From positions 1 through 59,045 of the IMG/VR virus record IMGVR_UViG_3300034196_000113: a stretch of 59,045 bases of DNA. The stretch is one strand, 5' to 3'. Numbering within the stretch: position 1 is the first letter of the stretch; each line of letters opens with the position of its first letter. A model generated the notes under the pieces. The model saw nothing but the letters and a program-made list of their open reading frames with translations. It did no database searches and had not been told where the DNA came from. This stretch comes from a virus. Below are positions 3,415-15,543 of the stretch, piece by piece. The position numbers were made by a program, and so were the translations under genes.

Positions 3415-3876
3415 TCAGTGGCGAACGAGGCTGAGCAAATTGGCGATGCAGCGCAGGCCGGCGGCGCGTTGCTCGGGGGTGCGTCGCGAGTAGCCGGCGA
3501 TGGTCAGTCCGCGGTTGCGGGCCCGCTGGTCGTCGGGGTGGGACAGGGCGCAGGCGGTACGGAATTCGGCGATGCTCGGTGGCCAGGGGCAGGTTGCGCG
3601 GCAGATCGACAGTCCGCGGGCGATTTCCTCTGGCGTGGCGCCGGCCAGTCCCTCGGCCCATTCGAGTGCAAGCACTTCGGTCGCAAAGCCGGCAATGTTC
3701 TTTTCCCATTTCACGCCCCAGATCATGGCGAAATGCTCTAAGAGCAGGGCGATCTCGGATTCAAAATGGAAGTTTGCCGCCGGGGAAGAGGCTCTTAAGG
3801 TGCTCGAATTTAAGTCGGTGTTGTTCTTTTCGCTGTTCGTTGAGAGTGAATGCGTCTGGGGTGTGGGCTGTGCCAT
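3415..3876 (-). CDS. Replication protein P-like (helicase-loader position)
   Basis: About 153 residues from the ATG at 3876, preceded by GGTGGAAAG seven bases away; a GTG at 3888 is an alternative. The middle reads HFAMIWGVKWEKNIAG..ALEWAEGLAGATPEEIARGL, then WPPSIAEFRTAC. This is the layout of phage replication proteins of the lambda P/DnaT group that recruit the host DnaB helicase. The 5' end overlaps the O-like gene by 116 bases; both frames look coding there. Its position immediately after an O-like initiator supports the call. Confidence 0.65.
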   Translation of the reverse strand: MAQPTPQTHSLSTNSEKNNTDLNSSTLRASSPAANFHFESEIALLLEHFAMIWGVKWEKNIAGFATEVLALEWAEGLAGATPEEIARGLSICRATCPWPPSIAEFRTACALSHPDDQRARNRGLTIAGYSRRTPEQRAAGLRCIANLLSLVRH

Positions 3877-4972
3877 TGGTCTTTCCACCGGGGTTGCTAT
3901 TGAGCGGCGTGTCGAGCTGACCGATGTAGTTTTCGCAATTGCTGGATCGGAATAGCGTGGCGGGTCGCAGGTATTGCCGCATGGCGTCGTCCGATCCCCA
4001 TTCCGCCGTCTTGCGGTCGATGACCCGTAACAGTTCCGACTTACCGTAATCCAGGATGCGCGCTTTGGCTAGGGCGGCGCCAGCCGTCGCCTTGCCGGTG
4101 TTCGTGCGGCTGCGGAAGGCGGTTCCGGCTTTCGCGTTGAGGTAATCGTACACATCGTCCACATCGTGCATCGTCGGGCTACTGCCCGACAAATGTGGAG
4201 GTTGCGGTTGGTGTTCGGGGATCGGCGCGGGGGGGGACAGGGGGAGGTCTTTTTGTTTACCTTCTTTGTTTATGTCTAATGATCGCGCGCGCGAGGCAAG
4301 CGTGTCCGAGCAATCTTTGACCACTTCGGGGGCAAAATCGGGGGCGAAAGGGGCGGGGGGGGTGCAATGGGTTGCATCGGGGGAAGTCCGGGGGGTGCAA
4401 CCGGTTGCATCGGGGAATCCCCGGGGGGTGCAACCGGTTGCATCGGGGAATCCCCGGGGGTGCAACTGGTTGCATCGGGCAATCTCCCAGGTGGGTGGTG
4501 GATTGGATGGCTCAGGCGCCGCATTATTGTTCATAAGCACCGGCCCTATTCGGATCGTGGTCGCGTAATCATACACAGCCCAGCTACTCTTGGGTTCGGG
4601 AACGGATGAAGGAGGGGGATTGGACGGGCGTCGAGCGCTATCGCCCCGTGTTCTTTCACGTAGTTTCTTATCCGACAATCGGTCGGTCGCCGGGGCTATA
4701 TCCCCGACCGCAAGACGGTAAACCGGGGCCCTTCCAGGCGTGCGCTCCAACGTCAATAAACCCCCCGTTTCCAGGCTTAGAATGCAGTACCGGATGGCGC
4801 GCTTCGTCAGTCCGATGTCCCGCTCCAGCCGTTTCATATTCGGCACGGCAATGTGATCCCCGGTGTTGTCGTCACCCCGGCTCGCCTGTCTGGCGAGCGA
4901 CACGAGGATAAATTTCGCGCTTGGATTCGCAATCTCTTGGCCATAAGCCCAGTTCATCGCCGCATCGCTCAT
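3761..4972 (-). CDS. Replication initiator O-like, wHTH plus phage C-terminal domain
   Basis: A 403-residue protein. Residues about 1-95 form a helix-turn-helix region (ERDIGLTKRAIRYCILSLE, then GGLLTLERTPGR). A Pro-rich linker holds three 10-11-residue repeats of the type GFPDATGCTP plus diverged copies (about 165-200). The C-terminus (about 275-355) has VYDYLNAKAGTAFRS, VIDRKTAEW and MRQYLRPATLF, the conserved phage replication C-terminal domain (Phg_2220_C type). It binds the origin and recruits the P-like protein in comparable phages. The repeated linker is encoded by DNA iterons inside the gene, as in lambda O. It starts 9 bases after the upstream stop. Confidence 0.75.
   Translation of the reverse strand: MSDAAMNWAYGQEIANPSAKFILVSLARQASRGDDNTGDHIAVPNMKRLERDIGLTKRAIRYCILSLETGGLLTLERTPGRAPVYRLAVGDIAPATDRLSDKKLRERTRGDSARRPSNPPPSSVPEPKSSWAVYDYATTIRIGPVLMNNNAAPEPSNPPPTWEIARCNQLHPRGFPDATGCTPRGFPDATGCTPRTSPDATHCTPPAPFAPDFAPEVVKDCSDTLASRARSLDINKEGKQKDLPLSPPAPIPEHQPQPPHLSGSSPTMHDVDDVYDYLNAKAGTAFRSRTNTGKATAGAALAKARILDYGKSELLRVIDRKTAEWGSDDAMRQYLRPATLFRSSNCENYIGQLDTPLNSNPGGKTNGTAHTPDAFTLNEQRKEQHRLKFEHLKSLFPGGKLPF
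4363..4480. repeat. Four origin-like iterons inside the O-like gene
   Basis: Palindromic cores occur at 4363-4376, 4396-4409, 4429-4442 and 4461-4474, spaced 33, 33 and 32 bases apart. The two central cores are the perfect palindrome TGCAACCGGTTGCA; the outer two each carry small changes. They are joined by GC-rich linkers (CGGGGAATCCCC). An AT-rich stretch (4250-4285) lies beside them. Four palindromic iterons in the middle of an O-type gene beside an AT-rich segment is the arrangement of the lambda origin, so this is probably the lytic origin. Confidence 0.75.
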
Positions 4973-6227: not shown

Positions 6228-6343
6228 GTGGACAAATCTCCTGTTCAAAGTGGACAAATCTCCTGTTCAAAGTGGACAAATCTCCTGTTCTATGTGACAT
6301 TATTTGAGCGTGTCCCTGTGGATAACTTTTAGCCTGCGGATAA
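6228..6343 (+). other. Plasmid-type origin: three 22-bp iterons and DnaA boxes
   Basis: Three tandem copies of GTGGACAAATCTCCTGTTC start at 6228, 6250 and 6272 (22-bp period, one turn-multiple apart). A perfect DnaA box in reverse orientation, TGTGGATAA, lies at 6317-6325, and a one-mismatch copy, TGCGGATAA, lies at 6335-6343, just before the rep start codon. Iterons plus DnaA boxes directly upstream of a Rep_3 gene define a theta-type plasmid origin, and usually also the site of Rep autoregulation. Confidence 0.85.
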
Positions 6344-6345
6344 CC

Positions 6346-7224
6346 ATGACTCCTGCCGATAGCTCGCTCGTCACTCAAGCAAACCAAGTTGTTGAATCGT
6401 CTTACAAATTGACGCTGGCCGAGAAGCGCCTAATCCTCGTCGTGTTGACGAAGATCGACAGCCACCCCGACAAGCCCGCGGCACGGCCGGAAACGCTGAT
6501 CGAGATCGACGCAAGCGAGGTATCGGCGCATTTGCACCTGCCGCAGAGCGAGGCATATTTGATGCTCAAGGAAGCCGCGGATCGTCTGGCCGAGCGCTGG
6601 ATCATTATCGACCGGCCCCACCCCAGGAAGCCGAAGATGAAGCAGACCAAGACCCGTTGGGTGTCGGCGATTTCCTACATACCGGACGAAGGCAAGGTGC
6701 TTCTGCGCTTAGCCGAGGACGTGCTTCCGTATCTCACGCATCTGGCCGGCGAGTTTGTCCGCTACAGCATCGACCAAGTCGCCGATATGTCGTCGGTTTA
6801 CGCGATCCGGTTCTATGAGTTGCTGTTGCAATGGCTGGGGGAAGGTCAACGCGACGTTCCGCTTGACTGGCTGCGGGAAAAATTCGCGCTTCCCGATTCC
6901 TATAGCAACATTCGCGACTTGAAGCGCCGGGTTGTCGATCCTGCCGTAGAGCAGATCAACCTACATAGCAACCTCGAGGTTTCCTACGTACAGCGCAAGC
7001 GCGGGCGAATCGTGCAGTCGTTTCTTTTCACGTTCGGTGTCAAACAAGAACCCAAGCCGGCGCCCGCCGCCAAGCGTTCTCCCCGCACCAACAAGAAGGC
7101 GGAAACAGAAGCCCGGATAACCGCCGCGGCCAAGCCCGGCGAAACCCGCGAGCAGGTAATAGATCGGCTGGAACAGCTCCGCAAGCTCAAGGACGCCGTG
7201 AACGCCCCGGCGCCTAAGCCTTGA
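6346..7224 (+). CDS. rep: Plasmid replication initiator, Rep_3 family
   Basis: 292 residues from the ATG at 6346; an upstream TTG would include the DnaA boxes, so I reject it. The N-terminal winged-helix region has the family pattern VVESSYKLTLAEKRLILVVL, then LIEIDASEVSAHL. The second winged helix has VYAIRFYELLLQW, WLREKFALPDSYSNIRDLKRRVVDPAVEQIN. The C-terminal 60 residues are basic and Ala/Pro/Lys-rich. Rep_3 proteins bind iterons and load host replication proteins; those iterons lie directly upstream. This gene is the clearest sign that the phage can live as a plasmid. Confidence 0.9.
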   Translation: MTPADSSLVTQANQVVESSYKLTLAEKRLILVVLTKIDSHPDKPAARPETLIEIDASEVSAHLHLPQSEAYLMLKEAADRLAERWIIIDRPHPRKPKMKQTKTRWVSAISYIPDEGKVLLRLAEDVLPYLTHLAGEFVRYSIDQVADMSSVYAIRFYELLLQWLGEGQRDVPLDWLREKFALPDSYSNIRDLKRRVVDPAVEQINLHSNLEVSYVQRKRGRIVQSFLFTFGVKQEPKPAPAAKRSPRTNKKAETEARITAAAKPGETREQVIDRLEQLRKLKDAVNAPAPKP

Positions 7225-7423: not shown

Positions 7424-7707
7424 CGCGTGTCGGTCTTCTTCCTAGGCCCCGGCAGAATCCCCGCGCCCGCCTGCCCGACCGTGCTCGGGGCAGGTTCCGC
7501 CCGGGGGATGTCGTCGAGGGCGAACAGGTTGCCCGGGGGGATCGCGTAGGGCACCCCGTCGACCTCTATGGTGTGGCGCCGACCGATCTTTTTGGACCCC
7601 AAGGCGACCACGGTGCCGATCTTGTCGTGAAGGTACGACGCTCGGTTGGTCGTGCGGCTTCCGTAGCGGATCCGCACGCGGGTTCCTATTTCCGGCCAGC
7701 TCAGCAT
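7420..7707 (-). CDS. Small basic protein, possible SH3-like fold
   Basis: 95 residues from the ATG at 7707. The N-terminal 65 residues alternate short beta-type segments (GTRVRIRYGSR, KIGTVVALGSKKIG, HTIEVDGVPYAI), like small SH3-type or KOW-like barrels. The C-terminus is Pro/Gly-rich and basic. It overlaps both neighbours by a few bases, so the three minus-strand genes form one unit read from the regulator at 8057. Function unknown. Confidence 0.55.
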   Translation of the reverse strand: MLSWPEIGTRVRIRYGSRTTNRASYLHDKIGTVVALGSKKIGRRHTIEVDGVPYAIPPGNLFALDDIPRAEPAPSTVGQAGAGILPGPRKKTDTR

Positions 7708-8057
7708 ACCGAGACGATCCTTGGTGGAGGGGTGGGCACCACCACTTCGGCTCCCGGCCGCGGTTTCGGTTCCGGCCCGTAAACGGGAAGGGGCTTGCGC
7801 GCGGCATCCAGATGGGCGAACACCCGCTCGATCTTGAGAACGCCGGGGTCTTCGATCTCGCGCCGCTCCAGCTTGCGCAGCCACTCCAGCCCCACGTCGC
7901 TTTGCCGCCCGATCTGTGCCAGCACCGCGGATTTCGACCTCCCGTCGGCCAGCGCCGCGCGCACCGACTTATCGAGTAACTTGTACGTTCGGTGTAAGAG
8001 CGAGGACGCGGGGATCGGGGCGCGTTTTGTTGATGGCGATGCGTTCTTTCTTCTCAT
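7701..8057 (-). CDS. Putative HTH transcriptional regulator
   Basis: 118 residues from the ATG at 8057. Residues about 22-70 read LLHRTYKLLDKSVRAALADG, SKSAVLAQIGRQSDVGLEWL, RKLERREIEDPGVLKIERVF, which looks like a lambda-repressor-type helix-turn-helix. The C-terminus is Pro-rich. I prefer this start because a perfect palindrome (8081-8095) lies just upstream and would otherwise be inside the gene; starts at 8120 and 8153 are possible. It is divergent from the repeat array and the recombination genes and is a candidate repressor of them. Confidence 0.6.
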   Translation of the reverse strand: MRRKNASPSTKRAPIPASSLLHRTYKLLDKSVRAALADGRSKSAVLAQIGRQSDVGLEWLRKLERREIEDPGVLKIERVFAHLDAARKPLPVYGPEPKPRPGAEVVVPTPPPRIVSVC

Positions 8058-8079
8058 AATGCGCAGAATCTCTAAGATA

Positions 8080-8110
8080 TTTGGCCGCTGGCCAACGACT
8101 AGACTGTTAT
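8080..8110. promoter_or_regulatory. Palindromic operator with overlapping rightward promoter
   Basis: TTGGCC-GCT-GGCCAA at 8081-8095 is a perfect 6-3-6 palindrome, 23 bases upstream of the HTH gene start. On the plus strand TTGGCC can serve as a weak -35, with TGTTAT at 8105-8110 as -10 (18-base spacing). That would start transcription just before the array at 8144. Operator binding could therefore control both the regulator and the array; this is inference. Confidence 0.5.
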
Positions 8111-8143
8111 CCGGCTGCATTGTACCGGGGAAAAGATTCCCGG

Positions 8144-8632
8144 GCGAGGACACGAGCCGTATCGAGCGCGAGAACCGTCTAAGTAGTGCGACCAGCCGTT
8201 GAGTCGAGAGTACCGGGGTCGAAAGCGAAGCCGTGTGGAAAGAGGGAACCGGAGCGACTACGCGATAGCCGCAACGTCAACGAGAATCGAACTACCCGTG
8301 CGATAGTCGTGCAGTCGAAGAGTACCGGTCTGAAGACGCGACACTCAGCCGCTCCAGCGACGCGAATCGAGGGACAAGAGCGACAGCCGTCTTTCCAGTG
8401 AGGACCGGTTCGGATGCGCGACATCCCGAAAAGGATACGTGAAAATACTGTTGTCACGGTAATGTTTTGTTGGTAGGATTTTCCCGGTGGCAGGGATGCC
8501 GCTGGCCAATGAGCCGGGTAAAATGCGAGAACCGTTGGTAAAGCGCGACAAGTCGTGTTCGATACCAGAACCGAACCAGCGATGCGATAAGTCTTGCTCG
8601 TTGTGCGAATCGTAAACAATGCGCGAAAGCTA
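8144..8632 (+). repeat. TIGR-like array, segment 1 (about 12 units, partly decayed)
   Basis: Alternating motifs of the type GCGACCAGCCG / GCGATAGCCG (motif A) and GCGAGAACCG or shorter GAACCG/GAATCG forms (motif B) recur with a 38-39-base period. Examples: B at 8166, A at 8186, then degenerate pairs to about 8415. Units from roughly 8420 to 8530 are barely recognisable; clear ones resume at 8526. The segment between B and the next A is 10 bases and differs in every unit. It is on the same strand as the genes that follow. No coding frame is supported. Confidence 0.8.
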
Positions 8633-8842
8633 ATGACGAACGACCCCGACGACAATCCCCCGTCTCCGAGTTATGACGACCCGGTATTCTTCACGCCAGG
8701 TTGCACGGTGCTGTATCAAGAAGTCGCCTGGGTGGTCCGCCGCGTCAATGTCGGAGCGGACGGGAAGGTCTACTCGCTGAACATCGACCGGCCTGGGGTG
8801 ACGACGTGCGTGGGGCCGAGTCATGTGATTAGGGTTGAGTGA
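8633..8842 (+). CDS. Small protein inside the array region, unknown
   Basis: 69 residues from the ATG at 8633; a TTG at 8594 lies inside array sequence. The N-terminus is Asp/Pro-rich and acidic. The rest looks like a compact beta fold (GCTVLYQEVAWVVRRVN, then GKVYSLNIDRPGV). It is flanked on both sides by array segments and is on the same strand, so it is probably transcribed with them. I do not recognise the family. Whether it acts with the array is unknown. Confidence 0.6.
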   Translation: MTNDPDDNPPSPSYDDPVFFTPGCTVLYQEVAWVVRRVNVGADGKVYSLNIDRPGVTTCVGPSHVIRVE

Positions 8843-8849
8843 GCCGACA

Positions 8850-9846
8850 TCAACACGGGAACCGTGCCGGATATGCGAAGCCTGGGGTAACGTGGGATCT
8901 GTGTCAACAGTGCGAAGTCGGGCAAAGGGCGAGAACCGTTTCGGAAGTGCGAAGCCGTTGTCAGAGTGTGGACCGCGCCATCTGCGCGAAGTCGGGCGAA
9001 TTGCGAGTACCGAATCAGAAGTGCAAGCCGCCATGTCAACGAGAACCGTGGAAGACAAGCGATCAGTCGAGTTGTGGGCGAGAACCGCGCGCGAAGTGCG
9101 ATAGCCGGGTTCCGCGTATGAAGCGCGCCCGAAATGCGATAGTCGAGAAATCCGCGAGAAACCGTGCGTTTAGTGCGATAGTCGAGAAGTCAGCGGGAAC
9201 CGTGCGGGGGTGCGATGAACGAGCCGAAAAGCCGGCGAGAACCTAAGACCAAATGCGAGTCGTGAAGCCGATGTGAATCGGTATAGTTGTGCGACAATCC
9301 GTAAATATAGCGAGAACCGCATCTTGAGTGAGAAGCCATGAAATTGGCGTGAACCGGAGAAGTTGTGCGATAGCCGCAAAGTATGCGAGAACCGGAAGGC
9401 CGACGCGATAGCCGGGCGGATGCGAGATACCGCAGTCGAGGTGCGAGAAGCCGTGAAGTAGGTCAGAACCGGAAAACGAACGCGATAGCCGTTCCGTCTG
9501 TGGGAACTGTACGTGCGGTGCGATAGCCGCGTAGATCGCTAGAACCGAAGCAAGCGCGCATTAGGTCAATAGCCGTATGAAATGTGAAAACCGGGCCGCG
9601 CGTGCGACGAGCCGACAGACTAGCAAGAACCGAAAACGATGCGCGATCAGCCGCTTGTCCAGCCTGAACCGTATGAAGAATGCGACCAGCCGCAATGCTG
9701 ACGAGAGCCGCGAACCCTGCGCGAGAAGCCGCTAAGAAAGAGTGAACCGTGCCGTCAATGCGATCAGTCGTAATTGACGTGAGAACCGTACAACCTGCGC
9801 GCGAAGCCGCAACATGAGTCTGAACCGTGACAATAAAGCGAGAGCA
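8850..9846 (+). repeat. TIGR-like array, segment 2 (about 25 units)
   Basis: Same architecture as segment 1, running from the stop of the small gene to the leader of the Tas-like gene. Typical units around 9375: motif A GCGATAGCCG, 8 variable bases, motif B GCGAGAACCG, 10 variable bases, next A. The last unit runs into the leader of the following gene. Motif A varies at two internal positions (GATAG, GAGAAG, GACCAG, GATCAG); motif B often keeps only GAACCG. Variable segments are all different. Confidence 0.85.
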
Positions 9847-9853
9847 ACAAACA

Positions 9854-11044
9854 ATGAATGAAGCAAGTGCGATACCGAGCGACGACAGCGAAAAAGACGG
9901 CAAGAAGTTCAAGAAGAAAGAACTCAAGGAGCAGTTGGCCAAGAAGGCAAAGGAGATCAAAGAGCAGACCAAGGAAATGCTGGAGCAGGAGAAGCCGCCC
10001 GAACAGTTGCAGCCGATGATCCGGCTGAACAAAGACGGGGTTGCCGCCCTGTTGGCCGGGCAATCCGGGGGGCCGATGCCGTCGGCGGGGGTTGCCGGGG
10101 CGTCGAATATCTCCGAGGCGCGCATCCTGGTCGATCTGTATTACGCGATGCAGGAGTACCGCAAGGGCTTCGACAATCAGGTGGGGGCCATCGAGCGGGG
10201 GGCCGATCAGGCGACCACGCACGTCAGCGCAGACTTCATCGGCACCCAAATCGACGTGCTGGAGAGCAACGCCAAGCTGTTCCTCGAGGTGTTCGCGTCC
10301 TCGCATCCCATGTGGGGCTGGTTTAAGGCCGTGCATGGGATCGGTCCCGTGCTCGCCGCCGGGCTCATTGCCCACTTCGGAAGCCGCGCCCTCCCGCCCA
10401 CGGTGGGCCATTGGTGGCGATTCGCAGGCCTCGATCCCAGCCAACGATGGTTGAAAGCCGATGCGCTGTCCGACCTGTGGAACGAGCAGGAAGGCGACAT
10501 CGACCAGCGGACCCGCAACGTCGCGGCCATTGTGGGCCGCTCGCCCGACACGGTGATTCGGGATGCGACCGTCGATTTTAAGACCGGGGAGACCAAGCCG
10601 CTGACCCGGGCGGGAGCGCTCAAATCGTTGGCGCGGATTCCGTTCAATCGGCCATTGAAGACCCTTTGTTGGAAGGTCGGAGATCAATTCGTGAAGCTGG
10701 GGGCCAGAGAGGACGCCTTTTATGCTCGGTATTACCGCAACCGCAAAGCCCAAGAGATCGCCCGCAATGAGGCCGGCGAGCGTGCCGCATTGGCTGCGAA
10801 GACCTTATCTGAAAAACCGAGCCATGCGCAACGGGCGACCTATGCGGACGGGCGCTTACCGGACGGGCGGGTAGACTTAATGGCGAGACGGGCGACCGTC
10901 AAGTTGTTTCTCTCTCATTTGCATGAAGTGTGGTGGAGGGTCGAGCATGACGGAGAAATGCCGCCGAAGCCATTCTCTGTAAGCATTCAGGGTCATGCAC
11001 ATTACATACCGCCACCACACTTGGATGCCGTAGGGCTGGAATAG
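9854..11044 (+). CDS. Tas-like protein: Nop/IS110 C-terminal-type domain, no nuclease
   Basis: 396 residues from the ATG at 9854; the GTG at 9827 lies in array sequence. Residues 14-48 are a Lys/Glu-rich coiled coil. The core has KAVHGIGPVLAAGLIAHFG (159-176), GHWWRFAGLDPSQ (185-197), then after an approximately 60-residue insertion PFNRPLKTLCWKVGDQFVK (263-281) and YARYYRNRKAQEIARNEAGE (290-309). The end has VKLFLSHLHEVWW and HAHYIPPP. This is the C-terminal (Transposase_20) module of IS110 transposases, equivalent in fold to the Nop domain of box C/D proteins. There is no DEDD/RuvC or HNH domain, so it is not an intact transposase. A Nop/IS110-like protein embedded in a two-spacer array matches TIGR-Tas, in its nuclease-free form. 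Expected role: binding array RNAs and, through them, DNA. Confidence 0.8.
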   Translation: MNEASAIPSDDSEKDGKKFKKKELKEQLAKKAKEIKEQTKEMLEQEKPPEQLQPMIRLNKDGVAALLAGQSGGPMPSAGVAGASNISEARILVDLYYAMQEYRKGFDNQVGAIERGADQATTHVSADFIGTQIDVLESNAKLFLEVFASSHPMWGWFKAVHGIGPVLAAGLIAHFGSRALPPTVGHWWRFAGLDPSQRWLKADALSDLWNEQEGDIDQRTRNVAAIVGRSPDTVIRDATVDFKTGETKPLTRAGALKSLARIPFNRPLKTLCWKVGDQFVKLGAREDAFYARYYRNRKAQEIARNEAGERAALAAKTLSEKPSHAQRATYADGRLPDGRVDLMARRATVKLFLSHLHEVWWRVEHDGEMPPKPFSVSIQGHAHYIPPPHLDAVGLE

Positions 11045-11049
11045 AGAGT

Positions 11050-12826
11050 CGTACAGCGCGCGAGAATCGACGCCAGAGTGCGAGCCTGGCGAGAGGTCTG
11101 AACCGAATCGAACGCGCGACAAGTCGAGTAGTACGCGAGAACCGTATGCCAAGCGCGAGAAGCCTGGATTTTGGCGAGAACCGTACCAAGCACGCGATAG
11201 CCGTCTTGGAGGCGAGAACCTGACAAATAGTGCGATAAGTCGGGCCTTTTGTGGGAACCGTATAAACGGCGCGACCAGCCGCAGCTCCAACAAGAACCGT
11301 CCCGCCCGTGCGATAGCCGTGGGATCTATGTGAACCGGGCGAAAGGAGCGACAAGCCGAATTCCAGGCGTGAACCGAATGCGAAGCGCGACAAGTCGTGA
11401 ATACTGCGTGAGCCGTACAAGAGGCGCGACCAGTCGAAAACCAAACGTGAACCGAAACCGATACGCGATTAGCCGTATTGGCTGTGGGAATCTACACCGT
11501 GGCGCGATAGCCGGGCCTTTGGCGAGAACCGTATTCGCAACGCGAGAAGCCGCACAGTTCGCGTGAACCCCTTGTCTGGTGCGACAAGCCGTGAAGCTAG
11601 TGAGAACCGAACACTGAGTGCGAGAAGCCGTGAAGCGTGCGAGAACCGTCAATCTAACGCGAGAAGCCGTGAACCGTGAGTGAATCGTCACGCGAACGCG
11701 ATAAGTCGAGCAGGCGACGAGAACCGAGTAGCGGACGCGATAGCCGTGATAAAAGCGGAGAACCCGAACACCAAACGCGATAGCCGCGGACTCGGCGTGA
11801 ACCGAGCAGTTCGCGCGATGAATGATCCGGGATGAAGGCGAGTACCGTTGAGGTAGCGACCAGCCGTGAAAGCCAAGAGAACCGTCGCGGATATGCGAGA
11901 AGCCGCGAAGAAGACGTGAACCGAAAGCGTAGTGCGAGAAGCCGCGAAGAAGACGTGAACCTAAGGCGTAGTGCGATAAGCCTCACGTATACGAGAACCG
12001 TGGAGGCGTGCGATGAAAGAGCCGTGAATTACGTTAGAATCGTAGCCGTCGCGCGATGAGTCGAGAAAATAGCGAAAACCGTTTCTAGAGTGCGATGAGT
12101 CCAGAAAAGAGTGAGAAACCGCCGGAATAGTGCGATCCGCGCCAAACGCGAAAGCCGGGCCTAGTGTGAATAGCCCGTAGAGATATGAGAAACCGAGAGA
12201 ATTGAGCGAGTCTTGAGGGTACACGAAGCGAACTACGCGTGCGATAAGCCGGAAGTAAAGCCAGAACCGATTCTCGCGTGCGACCAGCCGTGGGAGTAAG
12301 TGTAACCGTCGGGCCGGCGCGACCAGCCGTTAATCAGGTGGGAACCGTCTATAAAGTGCGAGAAGCCGCGGATCGTGTTTGAACCGACTGGGCCATGCGA
12401 GAAGCCGCGCGGTTCGCGAGAACCGAAATGAAGGCGCGACAAGCCGACGAACTAACACGAACCGTTATCGGGGTGCGACCAGCCAATTGAACTGGCGAGA
12501 ACCGCGTGGGTGATGCGAGAAGCCGTGACAGGCATTTGAACCGTGTAGGTAATGCGACCAGCCGCCTAACTGGCGAGAACCGTAAGAAAAACGCGACCAG
12601 CCGTGTCTAATGAGTGAATCGTGCCGATGGTGCGAGAAGCCTTCAACCCAGTGTGAATCGGAAGAACTGTGCGACCAGCCGTCAGTTCAGCGAGAATCTG
12701 AGTTGGAGTGCGATAAGCCGGCAGACAGAGCGAACCGGAATAAGGAGCGAAGCCGTATGATCACGCGTGCCGACCCAAAGCGCGATCAGTCGAGATAGCC
12801 AAGAGAACCGGTGAAGTCGCGCGATG
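11050..12826 (+). repeat. TIGR-like array, segment 3 (about 45 units)
   Basis: The longest segment. I counted about 45 copies of motif A (consensus GCGANNAGCCG) alternating with motif B (consensus GNGAGAACCG). In the clean part (11100-11690) the B-to-A segment is exactly 10 bases in 14 consecutive units, and the A-to-B segment is 8 (or 9 when B begins CGTGAACC), giving a 39-base period, or 38 when A is one base short. Units at 11895 and 11934 are near-identical, showing tandem duplication. Units around 12060-12240 are degenerate. All are in plus orientation. Confidence 0.9.
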
Positions 12827-12841
12827 GAGTACCCTACTCTT

Positions 12842-12859
12842 TGCCGCAGGGATGCGGCA
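12842..12859 (+). terminator. Hairpin at the end of array segment 3
   Basis: TGCCGCA-GGGA-TGCGGCA is a perfect 7-bp stem with a 4-base loop just after the last array unit and before the next start codon. No T-tract follows, so it is more likely an RNA-end or processing structure than a strong terminator. Confidence 0.4.
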
Positions 12860-12883
12860 CCACTCGGCGATCAGAGTTCTACG

Positions 12884-13126
12884 ATGATAAAGCTCAAGAA
12901 ACTGAACAAAGAGAAGTGGGAAGCAATCGAATACCTCACGATTTGGCAGTTCGCTTGTATTGCCAACGACGTGGAGCCGCCGGAGTCGTTAGAGGAATTC
13001 CTGGACTCGTATGCCGGGTTCGTGCATATCGGGGTCTTGTTTATGATGCTCTCTATTGCAGAGAAAGCCGGTCAATTCGAGATTATAAAAAACCCCGACG
13101 AGCCGGATAAGAAGGTTGTTCACTGA
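12884..13126 (+). CDS. Small phage protein, unknown
   Basis: 80 residues from the ATG at 12884; an in-frame ATG at 12824 lies in the last array motif and across the hairpin, so I prefer the shorter form. Pattern: KWEAIEYLTIWQFACIANDV, EPPESLEEFLDSY. Helical and acidic at the end. It sits 15 bases before the RecE-like gene and is probably co-transcribed with it. No family recognised. Confidence 0.6.
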   Translation: MIKLKKLNKEKWEAIEYLTIWQFACIANDVEPPESLEEFLDSYAGFVHIGVLFMMLSIAEKAGQFEIIKNPDEPDKKVVH

Positions 13127-13141
13127 GCGGGCGATACCGGA

Positions 13142-14092
13142 ATGAGCCAAGACTTGATCGTTGTGCAGAAAGGCGACCCGTGGGAGCCCCCGGCGATCAT
13201 CTACGATCTGCCGGCCGAGCAGTATTTCGGCATCGAAGCGGCCAGCTCGCATTTGTTGTCCGCGATGGTGCGGCAATCCCCGCTGCACGCGAAGACCGAG
13301 AAGCCGCCGACCAAGGCCAAAGACCTGGGGTCGCTGGCCCACCTGATGATCCTGGAGCCCGACCGGGCGGCGACGGACGTGCAGGTTAAGCCGCGCAATG
13401 CCGACCGTGCGAGCAATGCCGGGAAGCGGGCGCTGGTGGGGTGGATGCTGGAGATATTGAAATGTCCCGAGCCGGCGACGACCCCGGGGCTTGCGCCGGG
13501 CAAGGCGCTGGACGAAATGCTCGCGGTGCTGGAGCCCATGCTTGCAACGTCCGATGCGTTCGTGGCGACCCAGCAAACATTCGAGACGGCGCAGCGGATG
13601 CGCGATTCGGTATTTGCCAAGGCGATTGGGCGGGCTATCTTTGAAGACGGGAAAGCGGAAGTGACGATGCTCGCCAAAGATCCGGAGACCGGCGTGCTGT
13701 GCCGGATCAGGGCGGATTGGATGCCCGATGGCCACTGGTTGATGGTGGATCTGAAATCGGCGGCGAGCGTGTGTTACGACGAGTTTGCCAAGGCGGCGGG
13801 GAAATATAACTACCATATCCAAGCCGCGTTTTATCGGCATGTGGAAGCGCTGGTCAGCGGCGTCTTGAAGAAAAAATTCCTGCATGTGGTGGTAGAAAAC
13901 GTCGAGCCGTTCGACTGTGCATTCTACGAGCTGGACGAGGTTGCTCTGGATCACGGGACGCGGCGCTACGAACAGGGACTCGATTTATATGCCCGCTGTA
14001 TGTTGGCGGGATATTTCCCGGGGGTGCAATGGGATTGGGGGGTCAACGATTACCGGATCGAGTCGCTGCAATTGCCCAAGTGGGCGCTGTAG
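13142..14092 (+). CDS. RecE-like exonuclease (PD-(D/E)XK)
   Basis: A 316-residue protein with the features of the RecE C-terminal/DUF3799 nuclease: SSHLLSAM near residue 35, GSLAHLMILEPD with His67 (63-74), a glutamate around 173, then IRADWM and MVDLKSAAS with Asp203 and Lys205, and KYNYHIQAAFYR (221-232). These are the catalytic motifs of the 5'-3' double-strand exonucleases that feed annealing proteins in phage recombination. The next gene is RecT-like, which supports the pairing. Leader: GCGATACCGG lies directly before the start, close to array motif A. Confidence 0.85.
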   Translation: MSQDLIVVQKGDPWEPPAIIYDLPAEQYFGIEAASSHLLSAMVRQSPLHAKTEKPPTKAKDLGSLAHLMILEPDRAATDVQVKPRNADRASNAGKRALVGWMLEILKCPEPATTPGLAPGKALDEMLAVLEPMLATSDAFVATQQTFETAQRMRDSVFAKAIGRAIFEDGKAEVTMLAKDPETGVLCRIRADWMPDGHWLMVDLKSAASVCYDEFAKAAGKYNYHIQAAFYRHVEALVSGVLKKKFLHVVVENVEPFDCAFYELDEVALDHGTRRYEQGLDLYARCMLAGYFPGVQWDWGVNDYRIESLQLPKWAL

Positions 14093-14134
14093 CGCGCCGG
14101 GACCATTCTTCACTTTGCGAGAGCACCCAAGCCC

Positions 14135-15418
14135 ATGCCCAACGAAATGGCAACGATTCAGTCGTCGAACGAAATGACGCTGGTCTCCCGGCCGCAACCC
14201 GTCAACATTTTCGGTACACCGGAGAATTTCGCCTTTGCCGCCCGGATGGCCAAAGCCTTCACCAGTTCGGCCTTGGTGCCTAAGCACTACCGGGGCGAGG
14301 AAAACCTGGGGAGCGTCCTGATCGCAATCGACCTGGCGAACCGGCTGGACGTGTCCCCGCTCATGGTCATGCAAAATATGTCCCCTATCGAGGGCAAGCC
14401 GGCCTGGAGTTCCAAGTTCCTGATCGCGGCCGTGAACGCGAGCGGGCGCTTTACCCCGTTGCGGTTCAAATTCGAGCGGGACGAGAAGCCGCACGACGTG
14501 GAGTGGACCGACTACGTGTGGGGCGACGGGAAGCGCCCGACGCCCACGAAGAAGGTGGCGAAGGACATTTTGAACCGACGGTGCCGCGCCTACGCGACGG
14601 ATCTGCGCACCGGCCTGGAGTTGGAAGGGCCGGAAGTCTCCATCGTCATGGCCATCCAAGAGCGATGGTATTTCCGCAATGGGTCCAAATGGCCCACGAT
14701 GGGCGAGCTGATGCTGAGCTACCGGGCCGCGAGCCTTTGGACCGGCATCTTCGCGCCCGAGCAGACGATGGGGTTGCCCACGGCAGACGATGCGGCCGAC
14801 GCGATCGATGTCACGCCCGAGCGGGTGATGGAGACGAAGGAACCGGAAGTGGCCAGCGGATTGGACTCGCTGTCGGCGCGGGCCCGCGAACTGCGCGAGA
14901 AGGAGACGGACGCAGGGCCCACCGAGCCCGAGCCCACCCCCGCGCCCAAGGAAGCCAAGAAAGCGCCCGAGGACGATGCCGATGCGGATGTGTCGGGCGA
15001 ATGGCCCCGCGCCGCGCCCAATGGCGTGCTCTACGACGCCCGCGGCGTAACGCATATCCCCGGCTGTCACTCGGGCGGAAAGACCTGTAACCGGGACGGG
15101 TCTTGGCGGCTGCGTAAGGGAGTGGCCGAAGTGGCGGCGAACGCGATGGAAGCCCGCTACCCGAGAGTCGACCCGAAGAGCCTCGAGGCCCCTCCCCCGC
15201 CGGATGACGAACCCGGCGAGGCGTTCGCGGCGCCAACAAAAGGCGGGGACAATGACGGCCCCAGTTACGACGACGCCCTAGAGTGGATCGCGTCGGCCGA
15301 TACCACCGAAGAAGTCGACGGGGGTCTGGACGCGGCGCGCGATCTGGATCTTAGCGAGGGACAGCGGGCGGATCTCGTGGAGTATGCCGAGAAGCGCCGG
15401 GCGGAATTGATGAGGTAG
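14135..15418 (+). CDS. RecT-like single-strand annealing protein
   Basis: A 427-residue protein. Residues about 20-230 carry the pattern ENLGSVLIAIDLANRLDVSP, LMVMQNMSPIEGKPAWSSKF, LIAAVNASGRFTPLRF, and MGELMLSYRAASLW, which I know from phage RecT-family proteins encoded beside exonucleases. The C-terminal half is acidic, Pro/Glu/Lys-rich, with a small Cys/His patch (GCHSGGKTC) and a helical end. It should anneal strands resected by the upstream exonuclease, for replication-linked recombination. A GCGAGAGC leader box lies 12 bases before the start. Confidence 0.7.
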   Translation: MPNEMATIQSSNEMTLVSRPQPVNIFGTPENFAFAARMAKAFTSSALVPKHYRGEENLGSVLIAIDLANRLDVSPLMVMQNMSPIEGKPAWSSKFLIAAVNASGRFTPLRFKFERDEKPHDVEWTDYVWGDGKRPTPTKKVAKDILNRRCRAYATDLRTGLELEGPEVSIVMAIQERWYFRNGSKWPTMGELMLSYRAASLWTGIFAPEQTMGLPTADDAADAIDVTPERVMETKEPEVASGLDSLSARARELREKETDAGPTEPEPTPAPKEAKKAPEDDADADVSGEWPRAAPNGVLYDARGVTHIPGCHSGGKTCNRDGSWRLRKGVAEVAANAMEARYPRVDPKSLEAPPPPDDEPGEAFAAPTKGGDNDGPSYDDALEWIASADTTEEVDGGLDAARDLDLSEGQRADLVEYAEKRRAELMR

Positions 15419-15543
15419 GAAGTCGTCGCGGTTGCGAGAACCGAGACTTGCGTGCGAGAAGCCTTGCGAGAAGCGAGAACCGCTAACGACGTGCGACAAG
15501 CCGTCCGAAAGACAAGAACCGTCCCGCGAGTGCGATGCTAACC
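15419..15543 (+). repeat. TIGR-like array, segment 4 (about 3 units)
   Basis: Immediately after the RecT-like stop codon: motif B GCGAGAACCG, 10 bases, motif A GCGAGAAGCCT, 8 bases, motif B GCGAGAACCG, 10 bases, motif A GCGACAAGCCG, then a degenerate pair. The spacing rules and strand are the same as in the large segments, although 2.6 kb of coding sequence lies between. It ends at the terminator at 15544, so all four segments could be on one transcript. Confidence 0.85.

What the first reader, a model, noticed from the sequence alone, without database searches (positions are those of the whole stretch)
8144..15543. TIGR-Tas-like RNA-guided system with a very large, split array
Seen: about 85 tandem units with two alternating short motifs and two variable segments per 38-39-base unit, around a gene for an IS110-C-terminal/Nop-like protein without a nuclease domain. 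Known: TIGR-Tas systems (reported in 2025 in phages and parasitic bacteria) consist of a tandem interspaced guide array, processed to roughly 36-nt RNAs with two spacers, and a Nop-domain Tas protein related to box C/D proteins and IS110. Inference: this is such a system, in nuclease-free form, with array size and genomic splitting that look unusual.
Basis: partly seen in the sequence, partly recalled or inferred. Interest (0 to 1): 0.95.

Follow-up and report, generated by a model that had tools for sequence, protein, structure and literature searches.

The report
Giant gene-interleaved TIGR-TasA guide array
This phage genome carries a TIGR-TasA RNA-guided DNA-binding system with about 85 guide units, far more than the usual 5-15, laid out between the genes of a recombination operon, and related phages scatter their guide units at gene stop codons, so these systems can be much larger and differently arranged than described.

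Summary
I parse 85 dual-repeat units in five sub-arrays (7+3+26+46+3), all on the + strand. The modal unit is 39 nt: edge YGCGANNAGCCG, spacer A 9, loop YGWGAACCG, spacer B 9. The repeat pattern occurs 42 times against 0.02 expected. The 396-aa protein is a Tas protein. Its family profile hits solved TasR (1.6e-24) and TasH (3e-11) far above IS621 (0.003), and its fold matches TasR/TasH first. No nuclease domain was found, so it is a TasA. All five sub-arrays start and end with half edge repeats, as published for TIGR arrays. Array size and splitting are unusual against the published 5-15 units but recur in relatives: about 70 units in one block, 50 units in 13 clusters over 37 kb, 41 units in 9 clusters over 55 kb. 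Of 32 sub-arrays, 20 begin at the stop codon of the preceding gene (background 4%). Local spacer similarity suggests growth by tandem duplication. No target was found: self- and cross-matches equal shuffled-pair controls. Processing, DNA binding and role are inferred. Verdict: a real TIGR-TasA system with a new architecture (giant, operon-interleaved, stop-codon-anchored arrays).

The parts
8155..8421 (+). TIGR sub-array S1, 7 units, irregular; starts AGCCG, ends CGCGA
8512..8626 (+). TIGR sub-array S2, 3 units
   Evidence: a promoter-like match lies at 8451-8479 in the S1-S2 gap (consensus only)
8633..8842 (+). small ORF (69 aa), no family; its stop codon TGA abuts the first half edge repeat of S3
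8842..9841 (+). TIGR sub-array S3, 26 units
9854..11044 (+). tasA gene, 396 aa Nop/IS110-C-terminal protein without nuclease domain
   Evidence: PHROG 4285 4.5e-31; Transposase_20 region 158-198 weak; family profile hits TasR 1.6e-24 and TasH 3e-11; fold search top hits TasR/TasH
11047..12824 (+). TIGR sub-array S4, 46 units, begins at the tasA stop codon
12824..13126 (+). small ORF (100 aa from 12824, or 80 aa from ATG at 12884), no family; the half edge repeat of S4 runs into its leader
13142..14092 (+). RecE-like exonuclease VIII (DUF3799/PDDEXK) in the same operon
14135..15418 (+). RecT-like ssDNA annealing protein in the same operon
15421..15535 (+). TIGR sub-array S5, 3 units, begins at the recT stop codon
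15544..15574 (+). G+C-rich hairpin followed by TCCCCTTTT, probable terminator of the operon
   Evidence: sequence; not called by the simple scan
7701..8153 (-). divergent ORF, possibly a repressor (very weak match), marking the start of the + strand operon
   Evidence: E=0.07 only

Best explanation
This is a TIGR-TasA system of a tailed phage. The 7.4-kb operon is transcribed as a polycistronic RNA (inferred). Each of the 85 units is cut in the middle of its edge repeats by a host RNase with the help of TasA (inferred from the published systems) into a ~36-38-nt tigRNA: AGCCG - spacer A - loop - spacer B - YGCGA. A TasA dimer holds one tigRNA. Spacer A pairs with one DNA strand and spacer B with the other strand of an ~18-bp site, read on one strand as spacer A followed by the reverse complement of spacer B (this geometry is derived here from the cut sites published for TasR). 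Having no nuclease, TasA would bind and bend the site and block transcription or replication there, most likely on competing mobile elements or on host genes rather than on the phage itself. The array grew to its size mainly by local tandem duplication of units followed by spacer divergence, and new sub-arrays settled between genes, typically at stop codons where they do not break a reading frame. Shown here: family, array anatomy, gene context, stop-codon placement, local similarity of spacers. Inferred: transcription, processing, DNA binding, role.
For: Protein family: profile of 7 relatives hits 9mty TasR 1.6e-24 and TasH 3e-11 against IS621 0.0033. With the Microcystis phage protein left out, TasR 4.8e-16, TasH 1e-4, IS621 0.0036. 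Foldseek: TasR/TasH are the top 8 and top 10 hits with prob 1.00. Array. A 58%-identical TasA with almost the same repeats (TGCGATGAGCCG / TGAGAACCG, 20 units) sits in the same gene order with RecE and RecT in IMGVR_UViG_3300031256_000003. Microcystis phage Mvi-JY20 has a 26-32%-identical protein directly followed by a regular dual-repeat array. Stop-codon placement 20 of 32 against 4% background. Adjacent spacers A more alike than in shuffled order (lag 1: 9 close pairs vs 2.7, p=0.0005; lag 2 mean distance p<0.0005), with no effect at lags 3-4. Mechanism of relatives: PMC12045711.
Against: No guide has a convincing target. Matches of A + rc(B) to the own genome and to six related contigs equal those of shuffled spacer pairs, and two exact scans of IMG/VR for near-duplicate guides found nothing coherent. 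Repeats are more degenerate than in the close relative, so some units may be dead. There are no expression data. The AF2 models are of modest confidence (pLDDT 62 and 72). The duplication signal was not significant in the smaller arrays of relatives.
Confidence: 0.8

Rival explanations
1. The arrays are mainly RNA-processing punctuation of the operon: TasA-dependent cutting at edge repeats separates the cistrons and tunes expression, and the spacers are passive linkers.
For: Sub-arrays lie between genes and begin at stop codons in this window and in relatives; no targets were found.
Against: 85 units, or 70 in one block, are far more than punctuation needs. Spacer lengths are held at 9 nt while the sequence is free. 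Known relatives use these spacers as guides (PMC12045711).
Confidence: 0.1
2. A decaying system: the repeats have drifted and much of the array is no longer functional.
For: Edge length 9-19 nt, several units with broken box C or D, S1 irregular; the close relative has far more uniform repeats.
Against: The tasA frame is open and 58% identical to its close relative along most of its length. The core bases of both boxes stay at 75-100%, and half repeats are intact at all ten sub-array ends.
Confidence: 0.08
3. The protein is an IS110-type transposase and the tandem repeats are an unrelated minisatellite.
For: Pfam and PHROG names say transposase.
Against: The protein lacks the N-terminal DEDD nuclease, and its family profile and fold are nearer TasR/TasH than IS621. 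Independent relatives carry the same kind of dual-repeat array next to the gene.
Confidence: 0.02

Closest known systems
TIGR-TasA with dual-repeat arrays (Faure et al. 2025, PMC12045711; e.g. Flavonifractor plautii FpTIGR)
   Same: Nuclease-free Nop protein, alternating edge and loop repeats, 9-nt spacers, half edge repeats at array ends, phage context
   Different: 85 units against the published 5-15; five sub-arrays threaded through a RecE/RecT operon; variable middle of the edge repeat; box C ends CCG; ~60-aa insertion in the Nop domain shared with the close relative
TIGR-TasR (PDB 9mty) and TasH (PDB 21kl, 9w02-9w04)
   Same: Nop core by sequence profile and fold; box D and box C motifs in both repeats
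   Different: No RuvC or HNH domain, so no cleavage expected
IMGVR_UViG_3300031256_000003 locus (found here)
   Same: 58% identical TasA, near-identical repeats, same neighbours RecE and RecT
   Different: 20 units in two sub-arrays, very uniform repeats, RecT of another family, different structural genes
IS110/IS621 bridge-RNA recombinases
   Same: Distant homology of the RNA-binding domain
   Different: No DEDD domain, no bridge RNA; arrays of guides instead
Box C/D snoRNP (Nop5)
   Same: Same superfamily in the literature
   Different: Hit only at noise level here (rank 34)

Membership tests
TIGR-Tas (TasA) | Nop-domain protein of the Tas clade, closer to TasR/TasH than to IS110 transposases | tested here: met
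TIGR-Tas (TasA) | No fused nuclease (TasA rather than TasR/TasH) | tested here: met
   Pfam and PHROG scans show only the IS110-C-terminal/PHROG 4285 region at 84-388; the N-terminal 83 residues have no credible domain
TIGR-Tas (TasA) | Tandem array of two alternating 8-12-nt repeats with ~9-nt spacers next to the gene | tested here: met
TIGR-Tas (TasA) | Array begins with 5'-truncated and ends with 3'-truncated edge repeat | tested here: met
   all five sub-arrays start AG(C/T)CG and end nGCGA
TIGR-Tas (TasA) | Array followed by rho-independent terminator | tested here: inconclusive
   hairpin plus TCCCCTTTT after S5 only; not called by the scan
[quoted passage not shown]
   YG at the start and CCG at the end of both repeats
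TIGR-Tas (TasA) | Processing to ~36-nt tigRNAs dependent on Tas | not testable with these tools
   needs RNA
TIGR-Tas (TasA) | Tandem-spacer DNA targeting | tested here: inconclusive
   no target excess in own or related phages; host unknown; binding itself needs an experiment
TIGR-Tas (TasA) | Typical array size 5-15 units (usual, not defining: the paper says 'most often') | tested here: not met
   85 units
IS110 transposase | N-terminal DEDD/RuvC-like domain | tested here: not met
   only the C-terminal domain is matched

The most novel reading that the evidence does not exclude
Stop-codon-anchored, operon-interleaved and, in relatives, genome-dispersed guide arrays are a distinct TIGR architecture: a phage-wide guide bank in which guide maturation also cuts the polycistronic mRNA between genes, so guide supply and operon expression are coupled, and units spread by duplication and re-insertion at stop codons.
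Probability: 0.3. Interest if true: 0.78.

Novelty: new variant of a known kind. Interest (0 to 1): 0.62.

Why it matters
What TasA systems do and how their arrays arise are open questions in the founding paper. A system with 85 guides, relatives with 40-70 guides, units scattered at stop codons all on one strand, and traces of local duplication give material to answer how arrays grow (tandem duplication rather than a CRISPR-like adaptation machine) and what they target. The dispersal also means that surveys limited to 5 kb around the gene undercount guides.

Tried and rejected
Self-targeting: four spacer geometries and gaps 0-2, no excess over shuffled pairs. Cross-targeting among seven contigs: no overall excess; the guides of the close relative have one 17/18 and one 16/18 gap-free match in this window (48791 and 14349, - strand), kept only as a lead given multiple testing. 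Exact IMG/VR scans for two near-duplicate guide pairs: none, and three unrelated hits. Direct protein searches of IMG/VR, GTDB genomes, phages and plasmids with the single sequence found nothing; relatives came only through repeat-pattern and motif scans and a permissive phage search. A looser motif scan gave no further TasA. Rfam: none. IS110 transposase and minisatellite readings rejected (see rivals). Host: only a hint of Gammaproteobacteria from the Rep3 initiator. Literature searches found only the founding paper and a review devoted to TIGR-Tas.

Full report
What is there. The window is a 59-kb IMG/VR virus record with terminase, portal, head and tail genes on the - strand and a + strand gene cluster. 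A Rep3-type initiator (6304-7224) lies to the left. From about 8150 the + strand carries: S1 (7 units), S2 (3 units), a 69-aa ORF, S3 (26 units), the 396-aa protein, S4 (46 units), a small ORF, a RecE-like exonuclease, a RecT-like annealing protein, S5 (3 units) and a G+C-rich hairpin with a short T run. I call this an operon; that is inferred from strand and spacing, not measured.

Array anatomy. Each unit is edge repeat - spacer A (9) - loop repeat (9) - spacer B (9). Aligning all 85 units gives edge YGCGA-NN-AGCCG and loop YGWGAACCG. Box C is CCG at the end of both repeats, and box D is YG at the start of both, preceded by a purine in more than 90% of spacers. The same RYG start is seen in the Microcystis phage and IMG/VR relatives. 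Every sub-array begins with AG(C/T)CG and ends with nGCGA, i.e. edge repeats split in the middle, where published tigRNAs are cut. The pattern is 42 against 0.02 expected and confined to these places on the + strand.

The protein. A single-sequence search already gives TasR (PDB 9mty) as the best solved relative (6e-6; identified as TIGR-TasR by the title). A profile of seven relatives gives TasR 1.6e-24, TasH 3e-11, IS621 0.0033. AlphaFold models of the window protein (pLDDT 62) and of the compact relative (pLDDT 72) retrieve TasR and TasH structures first and IS621/ISCro4 second. No RuvC, HNH or DEDD domain was found. It is therefore a TasA.

Relatives. Five IMG/VR contigs were found through the repeat pattern and a WWRFAGLDP-type motif. 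G001 (IMGVR_UViG_3300031256_000003) has a 58%-identical TasA, the same order array-ORF-TasA-array-ORF-RecE-RecT and 20 units. It shares only the TasA region and minor stretches with this window at the DNA level, whereas another contig shares the structural genes and shows no TasA in its 38-kb record, so the locus appears to move between phages. G011 has one block of about 70 units: 58 exact GCGGGCC(A/G) copies, mostly 36 nt apart, the gaps accounting for the rest. G008 has 50 units in 13 clusters over 37 kb and G009 41 units in 9 clusters over 55 kb, all on the strand of tasA. So giant arrays and splitting recur.

Placement. Of 32 sub-arrays in six genomes, 20 start within -14 to +2 bases of the stop codon of an upstream ORF of 60 aa or more; random positions do so in about 4%. 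In G009 the first half edge repeat is usually TAACCA, whose TAA is the stop codon of the gene before it in most cases. ORFs were called mechanically, so a few may be spurious. The founding paper described arrays upstream or downstream of the gene and, for one stem-loop array, three sub-arrays; its stated search span was 5 kb.

Growth. Spacers A of neighbouring units (lags 1 and 2) are more alike than in shuffled order, with no such signal at lags 3-4. S4.23 and S4.24 differ at one of 18 spacer bases. This supports local tandem duplication followed by divergence. The signal was not significant in the smaller arrays.

Targets. From the published 8-nt 3' overhang I derive that a target reads, on one strand, spacer A followed by the reverse complement of spacer B. 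With gaps of 0-2, matches of 14-18 bases in the own genome and in six related contigs equal shuffled-pair controls. Role is therefore inferred only. A nuclease-free TasA most plausibly blocks transcription or replication at its sites on other elements or the host, as the founding paper also suggests. Co-location with RecE and RecT in this window and G001 could also mean a role in recombination; that is speculation.

Status of claims. Shown: family, array, size, placement, recurrence, local duplication signal. From the literature: processing and dual-strand DNA recognition of relatives. Inferred: that this system is expressed, processed and binds DNA; what for. The best explanation carries 0.8 for identity and mode of action; the blocking role on other elements, taken alone, I would put at about 0.4.

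Noticed in passing
L003:3480-3845 and 3839-4546 (Mycobacterium phage Moose MH479919.1, gp72 'transposase'): gp72 of Moose, with matching proteins in dozens of other Mycobacterium phages, is a Tas-like protein (PHROG 4285). Five regular stem-loops with ~30-nt loops lie just upstream, as in stem-loop TIGR arrays, and a Cas4-type exonuclease gene follows. A cultured model with a known host.
   Followed up: partly
L002:4905-5970 (Microcystis phage Mvi-JY20 PP438412.1): Gene annotated as hypothetical is TasA-like and is followed directly by a canonical dual-repeat TIGR array (ATGCGAGCC / ACGAAACCC) ending in a terminator-like hairpin.
   Followed up: partly
IMGVR_UViG_3300047160_007578 (loci L033, L037-L043): TTTTTAATCA and TTAATGATC recur (18 and 29 forward copies against 0.1 and 0.5 expected), many between genes and some at the ends of TIGR sub-arrays. 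Unexplained.
   Followed up: no
L035:8627-8860 (IMGVR_UViG_3300031623_000006): A csrA gene (PF02599, 5e-15) follows the TasA gene and its array in this phage contig.
   Followed up: no
window 13142-15418 and L008:203-3641: A RecE-like exonuclease and a RecT-like protein follow TasA in both close systems although the RecT proteins belong to different families.
   Followed up: partly
window 6304-7224: Plasmid-type Rep3 initiator in a tailed phage, best hits in Allochromatium and Methylotuvimicrobium plasmids (44%), which hints at a phage-plasmid of Gammaproteobacteria.
   Followed up: partly
window, just after S4 (about 12840-12860) and just before S2 (about 8485-8505): Short hairpins around CAGGGAT (GCCGCAGGGATGCGGC, GGCAGGGATGCC) without a T run; perhaps processing or stability elements.
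   Followed up: no
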